Source: Clostridia bacterium (GTDB lineage Bacteria; Bacillota_A; Clostridia; TANB77; CAG-508). From it: a stretch of 5,997 nucleotides of DNA. The position numbers and the translations under genes were made by a program. The DNA is taken from positions 1-5,997 of the forward strand of contig JAGATI010000112.1 in the NCBI GenBank assembly GCA_017621295.1, given 5' to 3'. Shown here piece by piece: positions 1 to 5,494 of the stretch; position 1 is the stretch's first letter, and each line of letters opens with the position of its first letter. Under the pieces are notes generated by a model. It saw only the letters and a list, made by a program, of their open reading frames with translations, made no database searches and was not told where the DNA came from.

Positions 1-75
1 AAAGCCCATATCTATCATTTCTCTTTCACTTTCTTTTGCAAGTCTTTTTAGTTTTTGTTCTAAACTTTCTCTCAT
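1..75 (-). CDS. 5' part of a small helical protein, truncated by window edge
   Basis: Only the first 25 codons are inside the window, so the function cannot be named. The start is the ATG at 75-73, preceded by AAAGAGG about 8 bases upstream, and it lies about 27 bases downstream of the expected start of transcription from promoter P4. The visible residues (MRESLEQKLKRLAKESERE, then MIDMGF) are charged and lack Pro and early Gly, as expected for an amphipathic helix. It is the first gene after a promoter and resembles in style the Lys/Arg/Glu-rich protein at 3819-3980, which is first after P2; their leaders also share sequence. That the two are related is an inference from context and composition only. 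Confidence 0.7.
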   Translation of the reverse strand, partial: MRESLEQKLKRLAKESEREMIDMGF

Positions 76-108
76 AAACAATACCTCTTTCTTTTTATTT
101 ACACCTAT

Positions 109-138
109 ATTATACCATATAAATCTTTGATATTTCAC
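109..138 (-). promoter_or_regulatory. Promoter P4, copy of the shared promoter module
   Basis: On the minus strand this reads GTGAAATAT at 138-130, then 11 variable bases, then ATGGTATAAT at 118-109. TATAAT (114-109) with TG one base upstream is a perfect extended -10. The box at the -35 position is GTGAAA, matching TTGACA at four of six positions, with an 18-base spacer. The upstream GGTGCA seen in the other three copies is missing; GGACTA lies near that place. The stop codon of the 142-378 gene (144-142) is only three bases upstream of GTGAAA, so transcription from upstream may run through. It serves the gene at 1-75. Confidence 0.8.
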
Positions 139-141
139 TTT

Positions 142-378
142 TTAGTCCATTAAATTACTTCTAAATAAACTTTTTACTAATTTACCTTTGTTAATTATGT
201 CTAAATAATCACAATTTGTTATATCTGCTCCACTATCAATGTCAAGTTTTATAATATCTCCATTTAAAAACTCTATTTCTGCATATTTTTTTACTTTATA
301 ATTTTTATCGTGATTACTATTATACATTGTTGCATTTTTATATAATCTTATTTCTAATGTTTTCTTTTCTATATTCAT
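142..378 (-). CDS. Hypothetical protein, 78 residues
   Basis: I do not recognise a family. The start at ATG 378 has GAGAGGAG nine bases upstream. The first half mixes basic and polar residues (KKTLEIRLYKN, NHDKNYKVKKY). The middle has alternating hydrophobic and charged residues (YAEIEFLNGDIIKLDID, about residues 32-48), which suggests beta strands in a small beta-rich domain, and the end is a basic tail (KGKLVKSLFRSN). It is the last gene of the P3 unit and is separated from the upstream gene by 82 bases, the longest non-coding gap between two genes of one unit here. Its stop codon is only three bases from the -35-like box of promoter P4. Cellular role unknown; probably cytoplasmic, since there is no signal peptide or membrane segment. 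Confidence 0.8.
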   Translation of the reverse strand: MNIEKKTLEIRLYKNATMYNSNHDKNYKVKKYAEIEFLNGDIIKLDIDSGADITNCDYLDIINKGKLVKSLFRSNLMD

Positions 379-460
379 TTTTGTTTTCTCCTCTCAAATC
401 TCCCACATATTTTTTGTTGCCATTTAATAACCAAAACCCCCACAAAATAGTCAATTCCAT

Positions 461-718
461 TTAATGTTTTATCGGTATTAAACCCACAACATAACCATAA
501 TTTTTGCCATTTCTAACTAAATAAGAATTAGTTTTAACTCTTATTAATAATTCATCATCTAACGAGTTATTTATATGTCTATTGACTAATTTTGATAATC
601 TATCACACATTTTTTCATATTTTCTTCTGCCTTTTATTACTTCACTATCAATTAATTTTAGTGTTCTTGCATTTCTTATCTCCATTATATATCTTTGTTT
701 CTTTTTTCTTTTAAACAT
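461..718 (-). CDS. Small basic hypothetical protein, 85 residues
   Basis: The protein is clearly basic, unlike most of its neighbours: the N-terminus is MFKRKKKQRY and a second basic patch is KGRRKYEKMCDRL at about residues 29-41. The first half looks helical, while the C-terminal part (LLIRVKTNSYLVRNGKNYGY, about 57-76) looks like beta strands around a turn. A basic protein of this size could bind nucleic acid or an acidic protein partner, but no known DNA-binding motif is visible, so this is inference. The start at ATG 718 has AAAGGAG nine bases upstream, in the 17-base gap after the zinc-ribbon gene, so it is the second gene of the P3 unit. There is a single Cys and no membrane segment. 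Confidence 0.82.
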   Translation of the reverse strand: MFKRKKKQRYIMEIRNARTLKLIDSEVIKGRRKYEKMCDRLSKLVNRHINNSLDDELLIRVKTNSYLVRNGKNYGYVVGLIPIKH

Positions 719-735
719 ATAAAATCACTCCTTTA

Positions 736-996
736 TTATAATTCTATTAATTCTCCATTTTCATCATATACATTATGTCCTACAAACTCCATAGAATACC
801 ACTCTTCTCCCTCTAAACCACAATTATTGCATTTATAAGGAAAATAAGCACACTCTCCCTCTAATTGTATTGCTCCATATTCTAAATCTTGCTCTTTACA
901 ATTAGCACATACACCCATTTCATTGACTAAATTATTTTTATCAATTTTAGGGTATTTTTCTTCATCTTCATTTGTATAAACTTCAAATCTTTTCAT
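736..996 (-). CDS. Zinc-ribbon small protein of phage/plasmid type
   Basis: This 86-residue protein has two CxxC knuckles, C30-x2-C33 (CANC) and C56-x2-C59 (CNNC), separated by 22 residues, the layout of a four-Cys zinc ribbon. C49 is an additional cysteine. After the second knuckle comes GLEGEEWYSMEFVGHNVY (about 60-77), a stretch I associate with small zinc-ribbon proteins carried by Firmicute phages and plasmids; no function is established for them to my knowledge. Zinc binding is inferred from the spacing. The ends are acidic (NEDEEKY and ENGELIEL). It is the first gene after promoter P3, with a leader of only about 20 bases and AAGGAG eleven bases before ATG 996. First place in the unit means it should be the most strongly expressed of the three genes. 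Confidence 0.85.
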   Translation of the reverse strand: MKRFEVYTNEDEEKYPKIDKNNLVNEMGVCANCKEQDLEYGAIQLEGECAYFPYKCNNCGLEGEEWYSMEFVGHNVYDENGELIEL

Positions 997-1023
997 AATT
1001 ATTTCATCTCCTTAACTAATATT

Positions 1024-1064
1024 ATTATATCATCTAATATCTTGATATTGCACTTTTCTGCACC
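1024..1064 (-). promoter_or_regulatory. Promoter P3, full copy of the shared promoter module
   Basis: On the minus strand: GGTGCA at 1064-1059, five bases, GTGCAATAT at 1053-1045, 11 bases, then ATGATATAAT at 1033-1024. The -10 is a perfect TATAAT with an upstream TG, and the -35 position holds GTGCAA with an 18-base spacer. GTGCA is thus exactly repeated with a ten-base period, one helical turn. The spacer contains AATATC and GATATT as an inverted repeat around AA. The stop codon of the 1069-1245 gene lies four bases upstream of GGTGCA, with TTT and T between. It serves the genes at 736-996, 461-718 and 142-378. Confidence 0.85.
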
Positions 1065-1068
1065 AAAA

Positions 1069-1245
1069 TTACATAATTTCTGCTTTATAATCTGCCATTT
1101 GATAATAGCCATTATCAATAAACCAGTTTATTTTATCTTCAACTTCACTCATTGTTAAATTTTCTTGTATATCAATAATATCATAAACTTTTAAATCACT
1201 ACTATCTGCACCTTTTCTAAATACTATAAATCTATATTTTTTCAT
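1069..1245 (-). CDS. Hypothetical protein, 58 residues
   Basis: This short gene fills the space between the 1242-1508 gene and promoter P3. ATG 1245 overlaps the upstream TGA stop in an ATGA junction, so translation is probably coupled, and GGAGATGATG ten bases upstream, inside the end of the upstream gene, is its ribosome-binding site. The protein begins MKKYRFIVFRKGADSSD, a likely beta strand, followed by LKVYDIIDIQENLTMSEVED, then a helix-like INWFIDNGYYQMADYKAEIM with two aromatic clusters. That arrangement suggests a compact alpha/beta fold. I do not recognise the family. TAA at 1071-1069 is followed directly by the P3 sequence. It is the last gene of the P2 run. Confidence 0.78.
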   Translation of the reverse strand: MKKYRFIVFRKGADSSDLKVYDIIDIQENLTMSEVEDKINWFIDNGYYQMADYKAEIM

Positions 1246-1508
1246 AATTCATCATCTCCAAAATAACTATCTATAAATTGACTATATAGAATATCATCTC
1301 CTACTTCTTGCCAACAATTCAATTCAAGTCCACTATCACTATATTTTCTATCATAAACAACTATTTTTTTAGTTTTAAAATCATCACTATCTGCTTTTTT
1401 ATTTTGATATTCAATTTCATCACAAATCTCATTAAAACTTCCTATAATTGTTTTTATACTATCATCTTTGAAAGTTTCAACTAAAATAAATCTCTCTTCT
1501 TTATTCAT
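1242..1508 (-). CDS. Acidic hypothetical protein, 88 residues
   Basis: The start ATG (1508-1506) overlaps the end of the upstream gene by eight bases, and the stop TGA (1244-1242) overlaps the next start by four, so three consecutive genes are physically linked and probably translated in a coupled way. AAAGGAAGTG upstream serves as ribosome-binding site. The protein starts with a likely beta strand (ERFILVETFKD), has a central EICDEIEYQNKKADSDDFKT segment, then KIVVYDRKYSDSGLEL and a Trp (NCWQEVGDD), and ends in acidic FGDDEL. Those last codons also encode the ribosome-binding site of the next gene. No family is recognised. The TGA stop here supports the standard genetic code. Confidence 0.8.
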   Translation of the reverse strand: MNKEERFILVETFKDDSIKTIIGSFNEICDEIEYQNKKADSDDFKTKKIVVYDRKYSDSGLELNCWQEVGDDILYSQFIDSYFGDDEL

Positions 1509-1950
1509 TTTCTAACACTTCCTTTATATCATTTTCAAACTCTTCCATAATTTCTTTATCTTTTATATATTCTTTAAATACTGCTAAACACTCTCCAATA
1601 CTTCCAAATATTTCATCAGTTAAACAAACATATTCTCTTTTTATATTTTCTTCTGCTTTTGTATAAAACTCAATTTCAAACCAGTTATTTAAATCAAATA
1701 CTAAATTGCCGTTGTCAACTGCTTTCTCATATTCTTCATTATTCTTTACATAGTATCTAATAATATCATAATAGTTTCTTGTTTCTATTTCTTTTTCTTT
1801 ATCAATATAAGTACATTTTAATTCCCCACGACTAGCAATATAAAAATCTCCATATTCACACTCTGCTAATTTATAACTGCTATCATAGTGAAAAAAGTCG
1901 TAGTCTTTATCATCTAATAATTTTTCATCTAAAACAATTTTAATTTCCAT
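1501..1950 (-). CDS. Strongly acidic hypothetical protein, 149 residues
   Basis: By my count about 40 of 149 residues are Asp or Glu against about 19 Lys or Arg, giving a net charge near -21. The N-terminal part is rich in Asp and aromatics (LDDKDYDFFHYDSSYKLAEC), the centre has YYDIIRYYVKNNEEYEKA, and the C-terminal quarter (CLAVFKEYIKDKEIMEEFEN, then DIKEVLENE) looks like an amphipathic helix with an acidic face. I do not know the family. Proteins this acidic on mobile elements can be DNA mimics that block restriction or CRISPR enzymes, but many are not, so this is only a possibility. The TAG stop of the upstream gene overlaps its Shine-Dalgarno site (TTTAGGAG), nine bases before ATG 1950. 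Its end overlaps the next gene by eight bases. Confidence 0.85.
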   Translation of the reverse strand: MEIKIVLDEKLLDDKDYDFFHYDSSYKLAECEYGDFYIASRGELKCTYIDKEKEIETRNYYDIIRYYVKNNEEYEKAVDNGNLVFDLNNWFEIEFYTKAEENIKREYVCLTDEIFGSIGECLAVFKEYIKDKEIMEEFENDIKEVLENE

Positions 1951-1962
1951 TTATATCATCTC

Positions 1963-2181
1963 CTAAAAAAACTTTCCATTATATGATATATCTCTATTTT
2001 CATTTAATTTCTTTAAAACTACTTTATAAACATTTATATCATAGTCCATTAATACATAAGTGATTATTAAATATTCACTATTATTAATTATTAAATGACT
2101 GCCAATAGGAAGTATCACATTTAAATTCATTTTTCCAATAGTCTTGTAATTCACATTTTCTATTAATTCCAAATTATACAT
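1963..2181 (-). CDS. Small beta-rich hypothetical protein, 72 residues
   Basis: Nearly the whole protein is built of alternating hydrophobic residues and turns: LNVILPIGSHLIINNSEYL (about residues 20-38), IITYVLMDYDINVYKVVLKK (about 39-58), then a polar end with DISYNGKFF. This pattern fits a small barrel of SH3 or similar type, where GSHLIINNSEYLI would be a strand-turn-strand. That is a fold guess from pattern, not a homology call, and no enzyme motif is present. The start ATG 2181 has AAGGAG twelve bases upstream, overlapping the TAA stop of the 2198-2842 gene (TATTAAGGAG), so the two are likely coupled. Its own TAG stop again forms part of the next gene's ribosome-binding site. Compared with its acidic neighbours it is close to neutral. 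Confidence 0.8.
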   Translation of the reverse strand: MYNLELIENVNYKTIGKMNLNVILPIGSHLIINNSEYLIITYVLMDYDINVYKVVLKKLNENRDISYNGKFF

Positions 2182-2197
2182 AATTAATCACTTCTCC

Positions 2198-2842
2198 TTA
2201 ATAATTGTATGATACAATTCTTCCACTATCTAACTTGTAGTAGTTTTCACTTTCTAATAAATCATAACCAAAACTTTCATCATCAAAATAAGGTTGCTCA
2301 TCATAACCAAAATTAAACTTTTCTTCATAAACCATATCATCAAAATCACTAAAAACATAACTTATAATTGCTCTATCTTGATATTCTAAACCATAATTTT
2401 CAAATATATCATCAACTTCTAAATCACTCAAATTATATTCATTTTTAACATATTCTTTTTCATCTGCAATTACTTTTTCAAAAAGTTCTTTGTTTTCATT
2501 ACTTTGTAATTTCTTTTCAATAGTGTTTTCATATTCTTTTATAATTTCAAGTCCTTTATTATATTTATCACTATCTTTTTCTATTCCATAACCTAGTGCT
2601 TTTAATTCATCATTTAATTTAAATAATTTAATAAACTCATCTTTTGTTAATATTGTTTCTAACTCTTCAAAATTGTTTTCTACTAAATCTCTAAACTCTT
2701 TTTCAAAACCACTAAAACAAGCACCCTCAATATGTAAACCACCAAAATAATGATTACACTCAAAACCAGTAAACTCAATATATTTTACAATATCTCTATC
2801 ATCACTATTTTTTACTTTTGCTAAAAATAATCTATTTCTCAT
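2198..2842 (-). CDS. Acidic 214-residue protein, ArdA-like C-terminus (possible antirestriction)
   Basis: This is the largest protein in the window and strongly acidic: about 52 Asp/Glu against 26 Lys/Arg. The N-terminus (residues 1-50) is RLFLAKVKNSDDRDIVKYIE followed by a Gly- and Cys-containing stretch with C29 and C42. A helical charged middle runs from about 60 to 145, with FIKLFKLNDELKALGYGIEK (70-89). The C-terminal segment YFDDESFGYDLL (185-196), then YYKLDSGRIV (201-210), recalls the YxDYExxARDL...G-hydrophobic end of ArdA antirestriction proteins, which mimic DNA and inhibit type I restriction enzymes. The resemblance is by eye and covers only the tail, so antirestriction activity is a hypothesis. 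A TAGGAG site overlaps the stop of the gene upstream and lies nine bases before ATG 2842. Confidence 0.85.
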   Translation of the reverse strand: MRNRLFLAKVKNSDDRDIVKYIEFTGFECNHYFGGLHIEGACFSGFEKEFRDLVENNFEELETILTKDEFIKLFKLNDELKALGYGIEKDSDKYNKGLEIIKEYENTIEKKLQSNENKELFEKVIADEKEYVKNEYNLSDLEVDDIFENYGLEYQDRAIISYVFSDFDDMVYEEKFNFGYDEQPYFDDESFGYDLLESENYYKLDSGRIVSYNY

Positions 2843-2854
2843 TTAAATCATCTC

Positions 2855-3223
2855 CTAATCAAAATCTCTATTTTCCACAACTTTTTTTAATTCATTTAAT
2901 TCTTTTGCAATTTCAGTTTCTTCAAACATTGCCAAAATCTCATCTTTTTGTCCTTTTTTAAATCTATCAATATTATTTTCATATTTATAATTATCAACAA
3001 ATCTCATTTTTTCTTTATATTCTATTTCACTAATTGCTCCAAACATACAACTTTGAAAAGTATAACTCTCCCAAGTTCTATTGTAATATCTGCTTTTATG
3101 TTCTTCAATTTCAAGTCCGTTTTTGAAAACATTTGTTCTATGCCCCCAAGCATTACTTGTACTCCAACTTTCATTTACAAATTGCCATTTATTTCCATTT
3201 ATAACTTTTGTTCTAATTTCCAT
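2855..3223 (-). CDS. Conserved-looking Trp/Tyr-rich phage/plasmid protein, 122 residues
   Basis: The first 65 residues carry regularly placed aromatics and a patterned core: W13, W20, W26-G-H28, then EHKSRYYNRTWESYTFQSCM (41-60) with W51. I associate this RYYNRTWE.Y..Q..M type of segment with small uncharacterised proteins of phages and plasmids; I know no assigned function. The rest (about 70-117) is charged and looks helical (FKKGQKDEILAMFEETEIAK, then ELNELKKVV), perhaps a coiled coil. The start is ATG 3223, nine bases after AAAAGGAG; a TTG at 3232 lies inside that ribosome-binding site and is not a credible start. It sits 16 bases after the 3240-3500 gene. His codons and the AW and TW junctions here fit the CATG avoidance noted separately. 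Confidence 0.83.
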   Translation of the reverse strand: MEIRTKVINGNKWQFVNESWSTSNAWGHRTNVFKNGLEIEEHKSRYYNRTWESYTFQSCMFGAISEIEYKEKMRFVDNYKYENNIDRFKKGQKDEILAMFEETEIAKELNELKKVVENRDFD

Positions 3224-3239
3224 ATCTTTCAACTCCTTT

Positions 3240-3500
3240 TTAAAATAATGTTATTGTATGTCTTGCTACTTCATCTTCTTTTATATCTAACCAAACCATT
3301 TTCCCTTTTTTATTTTCAAACTCTGCATAAAATGTCAAACTTCTATTTGCATTGCTATAACTATATAAACTATAAATATCTATTGTATTGTCTTGTTTAT
3401 CTCCTATATATTCATAAGCAATTTCTTTTTCTTCTAAATCTTTAATTAATTTTTTTAATTTATTATCATCATAATATTCAACTCTTAAAACCATTTCCAT
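3240..3500 (-). CDS. Hypothetical protein, 86 residues
   Basis: The reading frame is open back to 3545, but the start is set at ATG 3500 because TTAAGGAG lies nine bases upstream; a longer form would overlap the preceding gene and lack a ribosome-binding site. The protein begins MEMVLRVEYYDDNKLKKLIK, a strand followed by a helix, continues with DLEEKEIAYEYIG, and then has YSNANRSLTFYAEFENKKGK and MVWLDIKEDEVARHTITLF. Beta-alpha-beta order with a basic patch is apparent, but I recognise no family or active site. The upstream TAA stop (3516-3514) overlaps TTAAGGAG, so translation is probably coupled to the 3514-3777 gene. It belongs to the P2 run. Confidence 0.8.
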   Translation of the reverse strand: MEMVLRVEYYDDNKLKKLIKDLEEKEIAYEYIGDKQDNTIDIYSLYSYSNANRSLTFYAEFENKKGKMVWLDIKEDEVARHTITLF

Positions 3501-3513
3501 TTTATTCAACTCC

Positions 3514-3777
3514 TTAACTAATTTTAATTGTTTCCCAACTAGCAAGTCCGTTTCTTCTTCTTTTTAAATCTACAAAACTATATTCTTCTTTTCCATTTTC
3601 ATCATCTTTATAAATCATAAATAAACTTTTTTTAGTATAACCATTTTTTGTTTCACATTTGAAATAATAATTTTCTTTTTGTAATTTCCATATAATTTCA
3701 TCAAAAGTTTTATTTTGTTCTATCATCTCATCAACTTTTAATAGTGTTTCTTTTTGTAAATTACTTAACCATACCAT
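3514..3777 (-). CDS. Hypothetical protein, 87 residues
   Basis: The start is ATG 3777, nine bases after AAAAGGAG. An in-frame ATG at 3786 sits inside that ribosome-binding site and would have none of its own. The N-terminal half looks like two helices (WLSNLQKETLLKVDEMIEQN, then FDEIIWKLQKENY). The second half is more strand-like: FKCETKNGYTKKSLFMIYKD, a polar turn DENGKEEYSFVDLK, the basic cluster RRRNG, and ASWETIKIS. A helical N-terminus with a beta C-terminal part carrying an Arg cluster could suit a small binding protein, but no family is recognised. It is the second gene after promoter P2, 41 bases downstream of the 3819-3980 gene, with the hairpin at 3809-3836 between them. Confidence 0.8.
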   Translation of the reverse strand: MVWLSNLQKETLLKVDEMIEQNKTFDEIIWKLQKENYYFKCETKNGYTKKSLFMIYKDDENGKEEYSFVDLKRRRNGLASWETIKIS

Positions 3778-3808
3778 ATTAATCATCTCCTTTTAATAAT
3801 TTTGGTAT

Positions 3809-3836
3809 AGAGAATTGACTATTTTGTCAACTCTCC
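3809..3836 (-). other. RNA hairpin across a stop codon, not a classical terminator
   Basis: On the minus strand GGAGAGTTGAC (3836-3826) can pair with GTCAATTCTCT (3819-3809) over 11 pairs, including two G-U pairs, with a six-base loop AAAATA. The UAG stop of the 3819-3980 gene is at the loop and the start of the 3' arm. The stem is followed by ATACCAAAATT, not by a U-tract, so an intrinsic terminator is unlikely. It lies 23 bases upstream of the Shine-Dalgarno site of the next gene. It could affect mRNA processing, stability or translation; that role is inference. Confidence 0.5.
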
Positions 3837-3980
3837 AACTCTTTGAAATATTTCTCTATTTCTTCTCCTTAATTCTGCTTTTTCTTGTCTTGTTGCTTTT
3901 CTTCCGTTTATTCTGCTTTCATTTTTCCAAAACTCTTTTTTTAACTTGTCTAACTCTTTTTTAATTTCTTCATTTTTCAT
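3819..3980 (-). CDS. Small basic helical protein, 53 residues, first gene after P2
   Basis: This gene fills what would otherwise be an empty stretch of about 280 bases. It starts at ATG 3980 and ends at TAG 3821-3819. GGAAAGAGAGTGAT lies 10-20 bases upstream, a weaker and more distant ribosome-binding site than in most neighbours. The protein is almost entirely charged and helical: MKNEEIKKELDKLKKEFWKN, then ESRINGRKATRQEKAELRRR, ending NREIFQRVGELTK. The central NGRKATRQEKAELRRRNR is strongly basic and could contact nucleic acid; the heptad-like N-terminus could form a coiled coil. No family is recognised. The gene follows promoter P2 with a leader of about 30 bases whose start matches that of the gene at 1-75. 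Confidence 0.75.
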   Translation of the reverse strand: MKNEEIKKELDKLKKEFWKNESRINGRKATRQEKAELRRRNREIFQRVGELTK

Positions 3981-4018
3981 AGGTATAAATCACTCTCTTT
4001 CCTTTTCTTTACACCTAT

Positions 4019-4059
4019 ATTATAGCATAAACTTTCCGTATATTTCACTAATCTGCACC
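4019..4059 (-). promoter_or_regulatory. Promoter P2, full copy of the shared promoter module
   Basis: On the minus strand: GGTGCA at 4059-4054, five bases, GTGAAATAT at 4048-4040, 11 bases, then ATGCTATAAT at 4028-4019. The perfect TATAAT has an upstream TG and is 18 bases from the GTGAAA box. The stop TAA of the 4063-4641 gene (4065-4063) lies just upstream, giving TAATTTGGTGCA. Downstream of the -10 the sequence ATAGGTGTAAA is the same as after P4. It serves the nine-gene run from 3819-3980 to 1069-1245. Confidence 0.86.
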
Positions 4060-4062
4060 AAA

Positions 4063-4641
4063 TTAATCAAAATTTTTCATTTTAAATAAATTTTCTGCTC
4101 CAAAATCAATAATTTCATCTATATTCATATTATCTAATTTCTCATATTCTCTATCAGTAAGACCTATAATTATACTATCGTGTCCCATAGGCTTGTCGTG
4201 ATGATATTCTCTTAATTTTAGATATTTACCACTTCTACTACTTCCTTTTACATACATAGTATTATCATAATCTCTATAAAAACACTCCATATAATCATCA
4301 AAAATCTTATAACCACTAGCACCAGTCCAACGACTATTGAATAATACTACTAAATAATGATTATACTTTTTATAATTCATTAATTGCTTAAAATAATCAT
4401 CAATTTCTATTTCATCAGTATAATCATATTCAATATTATCATAGTTTTCTACATATTCTCCACTATCAATAGAATATCTATATAATAAAATAGTATCATT
4501 TTCTAAATCTTCATAGTCAAACTCTGCTCTTTTTTCTTCAAAAATATCTCTAATAGGTACACTATAATATGCTCCAACTTGTTGTAAATCTACTCCTTTT
4601 AGATATTCTCTTTTAAAGTTTCTATCTATATAAGTTTTCAT
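4063..4641 (-). CDS. Uncharacterised 192-residue protein with conserved-looking C-terminal half
   Basis: The N-terminal half (1-90) is acidic and Tyr-rich, including YSIDSGEYVENYDN and a run of Asp/Glu/Tyr to about residue 83. The C-terminal half has a denser pattern of motif-like residues: YLVVLFNSRWTGASGYKIFD (96-115, with W105 and SGYK 109-112), FYRDY (121-125), SSRSGKYLKL (134-143), HHDKPMGH (147-154) and GLTDREYEKL (160-169). I associate this order with uncharacterised proteins from clostridial-type phages and genomes, but have no function to assign; His147, His148, Asp149 and His154 could be metal or catalytic residues. SSRSGK is not a convincing nucleotide-binding loop. It is the last gene of the P1 unit. 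AAGGAG overlaps the TAA stop of the preceding gene, eight bases before ATG 4641. Confidence 0.84.
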   Translation of the reverse strand: MKTYIDRNFKREYLKGVDLQQVGAYYSVPIRDIFEEKRAEFDYEDLENDTILLYRYSIDSGEYVENYDNIEYDYTDEIEIDDYFKQLMNYKKYNHYLVVLFNSRWTGASGYKIFDDYMECFYRDYDNTMYVKGSSRSGKYLKLREYHHDKPMGHDSIIIGLTDREYEKLDNMNIDEIIDFGAENLFKMKNFD

Positions 4642-4653
4642 AAAATCATCTCC

Positions 4654-4896
4654 TTATTTAATTTTATTATATTCATCAAACATTTGTTTCATAAAATCTT
4701 TATACCATTTATCATTTACAAAATATTTATCACAACCATTTGATATTTCATCTTCATTTATTAATATTCTAACACATTTATTATATTCTGCTTGTTTATT
4801 GTTTTCTATAAATATATAAGTCCAATATGCAACCATAATTATTAAAACTCCCACAAAAACTAACAAAACATTTAATAAACTATTATCTTTTTTCAT
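4654..4896 (-). CDS. Small single-pass membrane protein, 80 residues
   Basis: Residues 7-30 form one clear hydrophobic segment (LLNVLLVFVGVLIIMVAYWT and four more residues), preceded by MKKDNS. The positive N-terminus suggests it stays in the cytoplasm and the remaining 50 residues face outwards. There is no lipobox and no clear signal-peptidase site, so a membrane-anchored form is likely. The outer part is polar and has two Cys, C41 and C55, in NKCVRILINEDEISNGCDKY, which could form a disulfide. Role unknown; small membrane proteins on phages and plasmids can act in exclusion of other elements, holin-like functions or host signalling, none of which can be picked here. TTGGAGTTGAT is the ribosome-binding site for ATG 4896. 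Confidence 0.84.
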   Translation of the reverse strand: MKKDNSLLNVLLVFVGVLIIMVAYWTYIFIENNKQAEYNKCVRILINEDEISNGCDKYFVNDKWYKDFMKQMFDEYNKIK

Positions 4897-4912
4897 AATA
4901 AATCAACTCCAA

Positions 4913-5239
4913 TTATTTGTTTTCTTCTGCTTTTAATAATCTACTTTCAATATCTTTTAATTCTCCTATTGTTCTCAAATTATCTAATTTTTCATTACTC
5001 ATAATAGTATTTACAAAATCATTTTTAACTTCTTCAAAAGTGCCATTAATTTTAAAGTGCCAACTTGCATAACATAATTGAAAACCTATTACTGCTAAAT
5101 CATAACTAAAATTAGCTCCTATATATGCAAGTGTTCCAATTTCATCTGCTCTCTCTTCAAAATCAATATCTTTTTGTAAATCTTCTAACTCTTTATTAAA
5201 CTCTTTACAATATCTTAAAAATAATTCTTTATTTTCCAT
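4913..5239 (-). CDS. Hypothetical mainly helical protein, 108 residues
   Basis: The start is ATG 5239, nine bases after TTTGGAG; a TTG at 5254 lies at that ribosome-binding site and is rejected. The gene therefore overlaps the end of the 5229-5429 gene by 11 bases, which suggests translational coupling. The N-terminus is a charged helix (FLRYCKEFNKELEDLQKDID), followed by ERADEIGTLAYIGANFSYDL and AVIGFQLCYASWHFKI (about 38-68), a more hydrophobic core with small residues that is too polar for a membrane helix, and then two more charged helices (FEEVKNDFVNTIM and LKDIESRLLKAEENK). The overall look is a compact helical protein. I do not recognise it. It is the second gene in the P1 unit. Confidence 0.82.
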   Translation of the reverse strand: MENKELFLRYCKEFNKELEDLQKDIDFEERADEIGTLAYIGANFSYDLAVIGFQLCYASWHFKINGTFEEVKNDFVNTIMSNEKLDNLRTIGELKDIESRLLKAEENK

Positions 5240-5429
5240 TAAAACCAACTCCAAACATTTTTTCTCTGCTTATTGCACCATTAATTGTAAAATCATAATA
5301 TAGATTATCAATTATAGTTTCCTTTATATAATCTATAAAATCATCATAACATTTTATATTTTGCTCTTCTTTTTCATCTGCATTTAATTTTCCATATAAT
5401 TCTTTCAAAAACTCTTCATTGATTATCAT
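5229..5429 (-). CDS. Hypothetical protein, 66 residues, first gene after P1
   Basis: The start ATG 5429 follows AAAAAGGAG by seven bases, and only about 18 bases separate it from the predicted transcription start of P1. The protein is helical and acidic at first (EEFLKELYGKLNADEKEEQN), then IKCYDDFIDYIKETIIDNLY, and ends with YDFTINGAISREKMFGVGFN. Its last codons (TTT GGA GTT) double as the ribosome-binding site of the next gene, which starts 11 bases before this one ends. No family recognised; the CYDDFIDYIKETI segment is an amphipathic helix. Its place as first gene of a unit is shared with the zinc-ribbon protein (736-996), the basic helical protein (3819-3980) and the truncated 1-75 gene, but it is not obviously similar to any of them. 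Confidence 0.82.
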   Translation of the reverse strand: MIINEEFLKELYGKLNADEKEEQNIKCYDDFIDYIKETIIDNLYYDFTINGAISREKMFGVGFNGK

Positions 5430-5453
5430 AATATCTCTCCTTTTTACATATTA

Positions 5454-5494
5454 ATTATAACATATAAAATCTTTATATTTCACTTTCTTGCACC
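5454..5494 (-). promoter_or_regulatory. Promoter P1, full copy of the shared promoter module
   Basis: On the minus strand: GGTGCA at 5494-5489, five bases, GTGAAATAT at 5483-5475, 11 bases, then ATGTTATAAT at 5463-5454. It has the same extended -10 and the same 18-base spacer as the other copies. Inside the spacer ATATAAA and TTTATAT (5478-5462) form a perfect seven-base inverted repeat around GAT, a candidate operator. The stop codon of the 5499-5717 gene lies directly upstream (TAATTTAGGTGCA). It serves the four genes from 5229-5429 to 4063-4641. Confidence 0.86.

What the first reader, a model, noticed from the sequence alone, without database searches (positions are those of the whole stretch)
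109..5494. One promoter module repeated four times drives four operons
At 5494-5454, 4059-4019, 1064-1024 and 138-109 the minus strand carries the same layout with fixed lengths: GGTGCA, five bases, GTG(A/C)AATAT, 11 variable bases, ATGnTATAAT (the leftmost copy lacks GGTGCA). The extended -10 is perfect in all four, while the -35 position holds the same non-consensus GTG(A/C)AA with an 18-base spacer. Conservation of a poor -35 plus an upstream box suggests a dedicated activator or alternative initiation factor, giving coordinated expression of at least 17 small genes. The regulator is not in the window. I know of no described regulon with this exact layout, but could not search.
Basis: partly seen in the sequence, partly recalled or inferred. 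Interest (0 to 1): 0.72.

Follow-up and report, generated by a model that had tools for sequence, protein, structure and literature searches.

The report
Phage promoters with their own box
A large uncultured phage related to Bacillus phage SPbeta appears to start many of its small genes from repeated copies of one promoter in which the usual host recognition site is replaced by a private sequence box, and a relative has a different box in the same place, which suggests that an unknown regulator controls these genes together.

Summary
The four-copy layout is real. The window is 94-98% identical, in pieces, to a 132.9-kb uncultured phage, G001, a distant SPbeta relative with a YonO-type RNA polymerase. 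G001 holds 10 copies, all on one strand within 11.7-27.5 kb, against about 0.02 expected. Intergenic extended -10 promoters of G001 without the box have a perfect TTGACA in 5 of 7; box promoters reach 5/6 in 0 of 10. A syntenic relative, G004, has a different box, TAGGCAyA, in the same 30-nt register, five copies, including one orthologous promoter pair. So this is a distinct promoter class with a phage-specific -35 substitute. Activation through the box, T4-middle-like, is my best reading (0.5); factor-free strong promoters and a repressor operator remain open. No regulator was identified. The leftmost window copy is a chimera of two G001 copies, joined inside the module, with about 2.3 kb absent. 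'Four operons' is not shown: no terminator was detected. New variant of a known kind.

The parts
5454..5494 (-). Module 1: GGTGCA (5494-5489), GTGAAATAT (5483-5475), ATGT-TATAAT (5463-5454)
   Evidence: counterpart of G001 23773
4019..4059 (-). Module 2: GGTGCA (4059-4054), GTGAAATAT (4048-4040), ATGC-TATAAT (4028-4019)
   Evidence: counterpart of G001 22680, identical over the 30-nt core
1024..1064 (-). Module 3: GGTGCA (1064-1059), GTGCAATAT (1053-1045), ATGA-TATAAT (1033-1024)
   Evidence: counterpart of G001 19916; 45 bp 86.7% identical to the copy in the otherwise largely unrelated contig L003
109..138 (-). Module 4, without GGTGCA: GTGAAATAT (138-130), ATGG-TATAAT (118-109). A chimera: upstream half like G001 19008, downstream half like G001 16678
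   Evidence: 99/100 nt identity upstream to 19008, 114/115 nt from the -10 on to 16678
4008..4014 (-). GTGTAAA element at the predicted transcription start of module 2
98..104 (-). GTGTAAA element at the predicted transcription start of module 4
   Evidence: also after the promoter G001 +27657, which has no box
4063..5429 (-). Four genes downstream of module 1 (5229-5429, 4913-5239, 4654-4896, 4063-4641)
   Evidence: 3 of the 4 scanned, no Pfam match over its cut-off, best PHROGs match E 0.018; 4913-5239 has no match in G001
1069..3980 (-). Nine genes downstream of module 2
   Evidence: 5 of the 9 scanned, no Pfam match at E 0.1, best PHROGs match E 0.0074; 1963-2181 has no match in G001
142..996 (-). 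Three genes downstream of module 3 (736-996, 461-718, 142-378)
   Evidence: 2 of the 3 scanned, 736-996 with weak zinc-ribbon matches below cut-off
1..75 (-). Start of a SprT-like protein gene downstream of module 4, cut by the window edge
   Evidence: G001 ortholog 16064-16696 matches Pfam SprT-like over its cut-off

Best explanation
The module is a dedicated promoter class for the leftward small-gene region of an SPbeta-related phage. Host sigma-A RNA polymerase recognises the perfect extended -10. The normal -35 contact is replaced by a phage-specific box at -36 to -28, often doubled by a second GTGCA one helical turn upstream, to which an activator (or a sigma-remodelling pair of factors) binds. 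This would work like a T4 middle promoter, so that these genes come on together after the factor has been made from TTGACA-type promoters. Shown by sequence: the class, its array, the fixed spacing, the contrast with TTGACA promoters in G001 and the different box in a relative. Inferred: that a factor binds, that it activates, that it is phage-encoded, and the timing.
For: 10 copies in G001 at up to 2 mismatches, all minus strand, 11.7-27.5 kb; the reversed control pattern gives 1 match at up to 3 mismatches against 15; first-order Markov expectation 0.017 for a relaxed form. GTG and AATA of the box are 10/10 while the spacer from -27 to -17 is mostly variable, so this is not merely recent duplication. 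Other intergenic extended -10 promoters of G001: 5 of 7 perfect TTGACA; box class 0 of 10 at 5/6 or better. Box pair followed by an extended -10 at the 18-nt spacer in 7 of 7 sites in G001 and L003, 0 of 19 stretches of other viral contigs, several of which repeat one sequence. G004: TAGGCAyA in the identical register, 5 copies, all minus strand in the homologous region; one orthologous promoter pair, upstream of the SprT-like gene. T4 middle promoters likewise replace -35 with a MotA box and need an excellent -10 (PMC2988021, passages). SPBRE sites of SPbeta, in contrast, are conserved through spacer and -10 in 9 of 10.
Against: No activator identified: sigma-70 region 2 (G001) and the OmpR-type domain (G001 and G004) gave nothing; sigma region 4 and HTH_3 gave one sub-threshold hit each, on one HNH/HTH protein and its G004 ortholog; that family looks like HNH endonucleases (phrog_59, E 7e-15) and its HTH is largely conserved. 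A consensus extended -10 may work without help. GTGAAA and TAGGCA each keep 4/6 of TTGACA. In G004 the contrast is weak: only 2 of 9 other intergenic sites reach 5/6 (with a looser -10 pattern), and only 2 of 5 box promoters have TATAAT. The tyrosine recombinase with its motifs kept leaves lysogeny, and hence a repressor, possible. GGTGCA is exact in only 6 of 10 G001 copies (7 with GTGCA), so the upstream repeat is optional. The G004 pattern was chosen after seeing two of its sites.
Confidence: 0.5

Rival explanations
1. Factor-free strong early promoters: host sigma-A RNA polymerase reads the extended -10 alone, and the box is a phage-specific optimisation of upstream or spacer DNA, like the extra conserved bases of T4 early promoters.
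For: TGnTATAAT in 9 of 10 G001 copies; extended -10 promoters can work without a -35 contact, and T4 early promoters show extra regions of consensus (PMC2988021, passages). Early and middle promoters of Staphylococcus phage K look like ordinary sigma-A promoters, often with an extended -10 (PMC11598898, passages).
Against: T4 early promoters match the -35 consensus very well; here 0 of 10 reach 5/6 while 5 of 7 other intergenic extended -10 promoters of G001 are perfect. An optimisation for RNA polymerase would not be expected to change from GTGmAATAT to TAGGCAyA in a syntenic relative.
Confidence: 0.2
2. Repressor operator: the box is bound by a lysogeny repressor that silences these genes, as MrpR does at SPBRE in SPbeta.
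For: SPbeta kinship; MrpR binds ten SPBRE promoters (PMC10516654, passages); an array whose site differs between relatives is what heteroimmunity looks like; a tyrosine recombinase is present, with a weak match to SPbeta YopP (31% over 54 aa, E 6e-4). Two other viral contigs (L004, L010) have a second GTGCAATAT just after the -10 of their single match, as operators often do.
Against: No MrpR (YopR) homolog among G001 ORFs at E 1e-3; the recombinase keeps TGVR, HxxRH, GHxN and Y in both phages (that these are the catalytic motifs is partly recalled), unlike MrpR. SPBRE fills spacer and -10, whereas this box sits at -35 and leaves the spacer free. TerL relatives in 0 of 288 genomes of the order of the MAG that holds L044, a search without positive control. 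An operator would not need to replace the -35.
Confidence: 0.2
3. A host-encoded activator reads the box, for example a response regulator that binds 10-bp-spaced direct repeats.
For: A full-length copy occurs in L003, an otherwise largely unrelated viral contig; GTGCA-N5-GTGmA is a direct repeat one helical turn apart; no OmpR-type domain in either phage.
Against: In the MAG holding the phage fragment L044 the only match with fewer than 2 mismatches is the phage copy itself; 21 matches against 14 control matches at up to 3. Its binning may be wrong, so this is weak.
Confidence: 0.08

Closest known systems
T4 middle promoters (MotA/AsiA sigma appropriation)
   Same: Consensus -10, in about half with TGn, and a phage-specific box in place of -35; nearly 60 promoters of prereplicative genes (PMC2988021, passages).
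   Different: Box sequence unrelated to (a/t)3TGCTTtA; it ends 15 nt rather than 12 +/- 1 nt before the -10; an optional second half-site upstream; no MotA or AsiA seen.
SPbeta SPBRE sites and the MrpR master repressor
   Same: An array of one element at promoters of an SPbeta-related phage (PMC10516654, passages).
   Different: Other sequence; SPBRE is conserved through spacer and -10; no MrpR homolog found.
T4-type PeSL promoter cassettes that mediate gene shuffling
   Same: Repeated promoter modules at which genes are exchanged; the chimeric module 4 is a direct case.
   Different: No stem-loop terminator in the window. PeSL papers are known here only from a mention and reference entries in PMC4503421 (passages).
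T4 early promoters
   Same: Extended consensus around TGn/-10 in a phage promoter family.
   Different: T4 early promoters have excellent -35 matches (PMC2988021, passages); these do not.

Membership tests
T4 middle promoter (MotA-dependent) | Excellent sigma -10, often with TGn | tested here: met
   G001: TATAAT in 9 of 10, TGn in 10 of 10; G004: TATAAT in 2 of 5, TGn in 5 of 5; window 4 of 4
T4 middle promoter (MotA-dependent) | MotA box (a/t)3TGCTTtA, 12 +/- 1 bp from the -10 | tested here: not met
   Box is GTGmAATAT and ends 15 nt upstream; definition from PMC2988021 (passages)
T4 middle promoter (MotA-dependent) | MotA and AsiA encoded | tested here: inconclusive
   Not among the 25 of 26 Pfam families shown for 80 of the 89 listed G001 ORFs; most of the rest of G001 was not scanned and remote homologs could be missed
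SPBRE / MrpR | SPBRE sequence at the promoters | tested here: not met
   SPBRE aligned from 10 SPBc2 promoters is different; neither the G001 nor the G004 layout occurs in SPBc2
SPBRE / MrpR | Tyrosine-recombinase-fold repressor with decayed active site | tested here: not met
   No YopR hit; the recombinase found keeps TGVR, HxxRH, GHxN and Y in G001 and G004
SPbeta-related phage | Homologous terminase and YonO-type RNA polymerase | tested here: met
   TerL 29%, YonO-like 28% to SPBc2; DFDGD kept in G001 and G004. For G001, not for the 6-kb window itself
T4 early promoter | Good -35 match | tested here: not met
   0 of 10 G001 copies at 5/6 or better
PeSL cassette | Early promoter combined with a stem-loop terminator | tested here: not met
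   0 terminator-like sites in the window
PeSL cassette | Gene exchange at the promoter cassette | tested here: met
   Chimeric module 4 against G001 19008/16678; one case
Alternative-sigma promoter | Own sigma factor encoded or non-consensus -10 | tested here: not met
   No Sigma70_r2 match in G001 (control rings in 11 of 14); Sigma70_r4 one hit, E 0.02, below cut-off; -10 is TATAAT. Host sigma factors not tested

The most novel reading that the evidence does not exclude
Phages of this uncultured SPbeta/YonO-related group run a three-tier programme: TTGACA-type promoters for host RNA polymerase, a middle class opened by a phage-specific, -35-replacing activator whose box differs between relatives at constant spacing, and YonO for late genes. 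The middle modules also act as recombination joints by which gene cassettes are exchanged.
Probability: 0.35. Interest if true: 0.65.

Novelty: new variant of a known kind. Interest (0 to 1): 0.5.

Why it matters
Replacement of the -35 contact by a phage box is best known from T4. A second, unrelated case in phages that also carry their own late-type RNA polymerase would show how such phages order their earlier genes. The different boxes of two syntenic phages give a handle for finding the regulator, and the chimeric module catches gene exchange at a promoter.

Tried and rejected
Megablast of the window against phage records: no match. Own-genome search: none held. The 30-nt layout in viral contigs: 14 stretches, 4 of them in G001 (5 sites) and 10 in other contigs. 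Of those 10 only L003 has the upstream GTGCA; 9 do not, four of them (L006, L009, L012, L013) being one shared sequence and two (L004, L010) another. I take the 9 as chance or unrelated but did not test them. Genome contigs: 11 stretches; only L044 (near-identical phage piece, itself one mismatch off) has the box; 10 do not. Relatives by TerL: 15 loci, of which one is G001 and L075 was not searched; in the other 13 records the layout occurs at best once with 2 mismatches, in G004, at what looks like a gene start. Six of them were read further and do not reach the box region. Two window proteins found no relative but G001. The gene after the L003 copy found one weak relative.

Regulator hunt: the G001 tyrosine recombinase (rejected as MrpR-like). 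The HNH/HTH protein G001 7213-7689: hit by Mor below its cut-off, weakly by a late-activator PHROG but much better by an HNH endonuclease PHROG, by Sigma70_r4 and, in the G004 ortholog, by HTH_3. It looked promising because the G004 ortholog has lost the HNH histidine and changed its recognition helix, but of 30 aligned sequences (G001's and 29 of the 30 hits; P0001 left out, the G004 ortholog not included) 28 keep the histidine and most keep the helix: a weak candidate. 80 of 89 listed ORFs of the first 37 kb were scanned with Pfam and PHROGs; one weak match to the T4 RNA-polymerase-binding protein RpbA (E 0.012) was not followed up. Left out of that scan: the recombinase, the HNH/HTH and the SprT-like protein (scanned), 35416-36642 (compared by blastp) and five ORFs not scanned. 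No structure was predicted.

The GTGTAA element was considered as part of the box system, but it also follows promoter +27657, which has no box.
Full report
Observation. The four minus-strand copies are present exactly as described. The 30-nt core GTGMAATAT-N11-ATGNTATAAT occurs four times with no mismatch; shuffles give a mean of 0.20 at up to three mismatches. GGTGCA precedes three of them at 5 nt. With TATAAT at -12 to -7, the box covers -36 to -28 and the upstream GTGCA covers -46 to -42: a direct repeat with a 10-bp offset.

Source. One scan of viral contigs found IMGVR_UViG_3300028048_000071 (132,932 bp, here G001) with five exact copies; the window matches it at 94-98% in blocks. Its terminase is 28-29% identical to those of the 20 listed of 104 phage records, SPbeta-like phages among them. 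BLASTP against SPBc2 ORFs adds a YonO-type RNA polymerase (28%; DFDGD kept), a YonV homolog (39%), DNA polymerase and tape-measure homologs, but no YopR/MrpR. A near-identical 4.4-kb piece sits in a Bacilli MAG from a water deer omasum (L044); 0 of 288 genomes of that order hold a terminase at E 1e-30, without a positive control, so the host remains uncertain.

Copies in G001. Ten copies at up to two mismatches, all minus strand, at 11.7-27.5 kb; five more at three mismatches lie elsewhere on either strand; the reversed control pattern gives one match. A slightly relaxed pattern gives 10 observed against a first-order Markov mean of 0.017 (60 simulations). In nine of ten a start codon of an ORF of at least 40 codons follows 24-38 nt after the -10; for 27431 none was found within 130 nt. 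GTG and AATA are invariant in 10 of 10, the fourth base is A, C or T, and the 11-nt spacer is mostly variable. Matching window and G001 copies differ at the fourth base, in the spacer and, in module 4, at the n of TGn.

Two promoter classes. Among intergenic extended -10 sites in G001 without the box, 5 of 7 have a perfect TTGACA at 16-17 nt; the other two are TTGAAT and a TTGACA at 15 nt by my reading. None of the ten box promoters reaches 5/6. Three box copies count as 'in ORF' there: two because the mechanical ORF starts at the GTG of the box or just upstream of it, one because of an opposite-strand ORF. In G004 the contrast is weaker: 2 of 9 other intergenic sites reach 5/6, under a looser -10 pattern. 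The TTGACA class includes the promoter upstream of the YonO operon (also seen in relatives G005, G006 and G012), one at 27.5 kb that faces away from the box array, and one beside the tRNA/tmRNA cluster.

The box is coupled to the -10. A pattern for the box pair alone (GTGCANNAAAGTGNAATAT) hit 25 viral stretches: 19 in other contigs, several repeating one sequence, and 6 stretches (7 sites) in G001 and L003. All 7 of those sites, and none of the 19 stretches, have an extended -10 at the 18-nt spacer. L003 is an 8.6-kb fragment with a reverse transcriptase, an IS1595-type transposase, a CHAP lysin and an HNH gene, otherwise largely unrelated to G001.

A relative with another box. IMGVR_UViG_3300031992_000040 (108,674 bp, G004) is syntenic (terminase 72%, YonO-like 69%, many orthologs in the small-gene region). 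It lacks the GTGnAATA layout but has TAGGCAyA in the same register in five copies, all minus strand, 98-108.5 kb (Markov mean 0.017). I wrote this pattern after seeing two of its sites, so the figure flatters it. Its -10 is TATAAT in 2 of 5. A scan of viral contigs finds the pattern only there. One orthologous pair, G001 16678 and G004 100675, lies upstream of the SprT-like gene (53% identity); two other pairs of first genes match only weakly over 41 aa, and 108513 has no ORF of 40 codons starting within 130 nt. Same geometry with a different box is what a trans-acting, phage-specific protein would leave.

Comparison with SPbeta. From the ten promoters that PMC10516654 reports as MrpR-bound (passages), a Gibbs run gave one element through spacer and -10 in nine; the yorM segment fits poorly. 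The present module does the reverse: conserved box at -35, free spacer. This favours an activator over a MrpR-like repressor but does not prove it.

Mechanism. My best reading is a T4-middle-like design (definition from PMC2988021, passages): host sigma-A on the extended -10, with a phage-specific factor at the box. YonO would serve late genes, as shown for SPbeta (PMC5467207, passages). The regulator is not identified. Sigma region 2 and OmpR-type domains were not found; region 4 and HTH_3 profiles gave one sub-threshold hit each, on an HNH/HTH protein in G001 and on its ortholog in G004. That protein has 30 relatives, 8 with a longest contig of 110-134 kb, so it may be a regular gene of this phage group.

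Gene exchange at the module. Window module 4 is 99/100 identical to G001 19008 upstream of the box and 114/115 identical to G001 16678 from the -10 on; about 2.3 kb between the two is absent from the window. Either the window lost it or G001 gained it; the joint lies within the module. This explains the missing GGTGCA, also missing at 19008. Two further genes (1963-2181 and 4913-5239) are in the window but found no match in G001.

Not shown. No terminator-like site was detected in the window, and in G001 seven of ten boxes start 4-19 nt after the upstream ORF, so the modules look like re-initiation points in one long co-directional cluster rather than heads of separate operons. Timing, transcription starts and the sign of regulation are untested; that the region is 'early' is inferred. 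Literature: my searches covered SPBRE, MrpR, YonO, middle promoters and PeSL; I read passages of six papers and none in full. A DNA motif cannot be searched for there, so absence of a published description of this layout is not established.

Noticed in passing
window 98-138 against G001 16.5-19.1 kb: The leftmost promoter is a chimera of two G001 promoters, with about 2.3 kb between them missing from the window: the joint lies inside the repeated module.
   Followed up: yes
L035:17203-17626 (G001 117203-117626): The phage encodes a tmRNA (Rfam RF00023, 88.4 bits; tag GNILKQFSNKVKSLFTLNSVAFA) among 19 tRNA genes, near a TTGACA-type extended -10 promoter.
   Followed up: partly
G001 107912, minus strand (L035:7912): A TTGACA/TGCTATAAT promoter followed at once by a short inverted repeat and a T run: possibly a small non-coding RNA (by eye).
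   Followed up: no
G001 38050-40806 and G004 8064-10817: YonO-type single-chain RNA polymerases (69% identical to each other) with the DFDGD motif kept.
   Followed up: partly
L003:3749-3789: A complete 41-bp module, upstream GGTGCA included, in an otherwise largely unrelated 8.6-kb viral fragment; the -10 ends just at the start codon of a 222-aa ORF with no Pfam match, whose true start may lie further in.
   Followed up: partly
L004 and L010 (viral contigs, about 42% GC): A GTGCAATAT-N11-ATGCTATAAT match followed at once by a second GTGCAATAT and further GTGCA-like words, ahead of a possible gene start: another promoter with repeated boxes?
   Followed up: no
window 1963-2181 and 4913-5239: Two small genes present in the window with no match in G001.
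   Followed up: no
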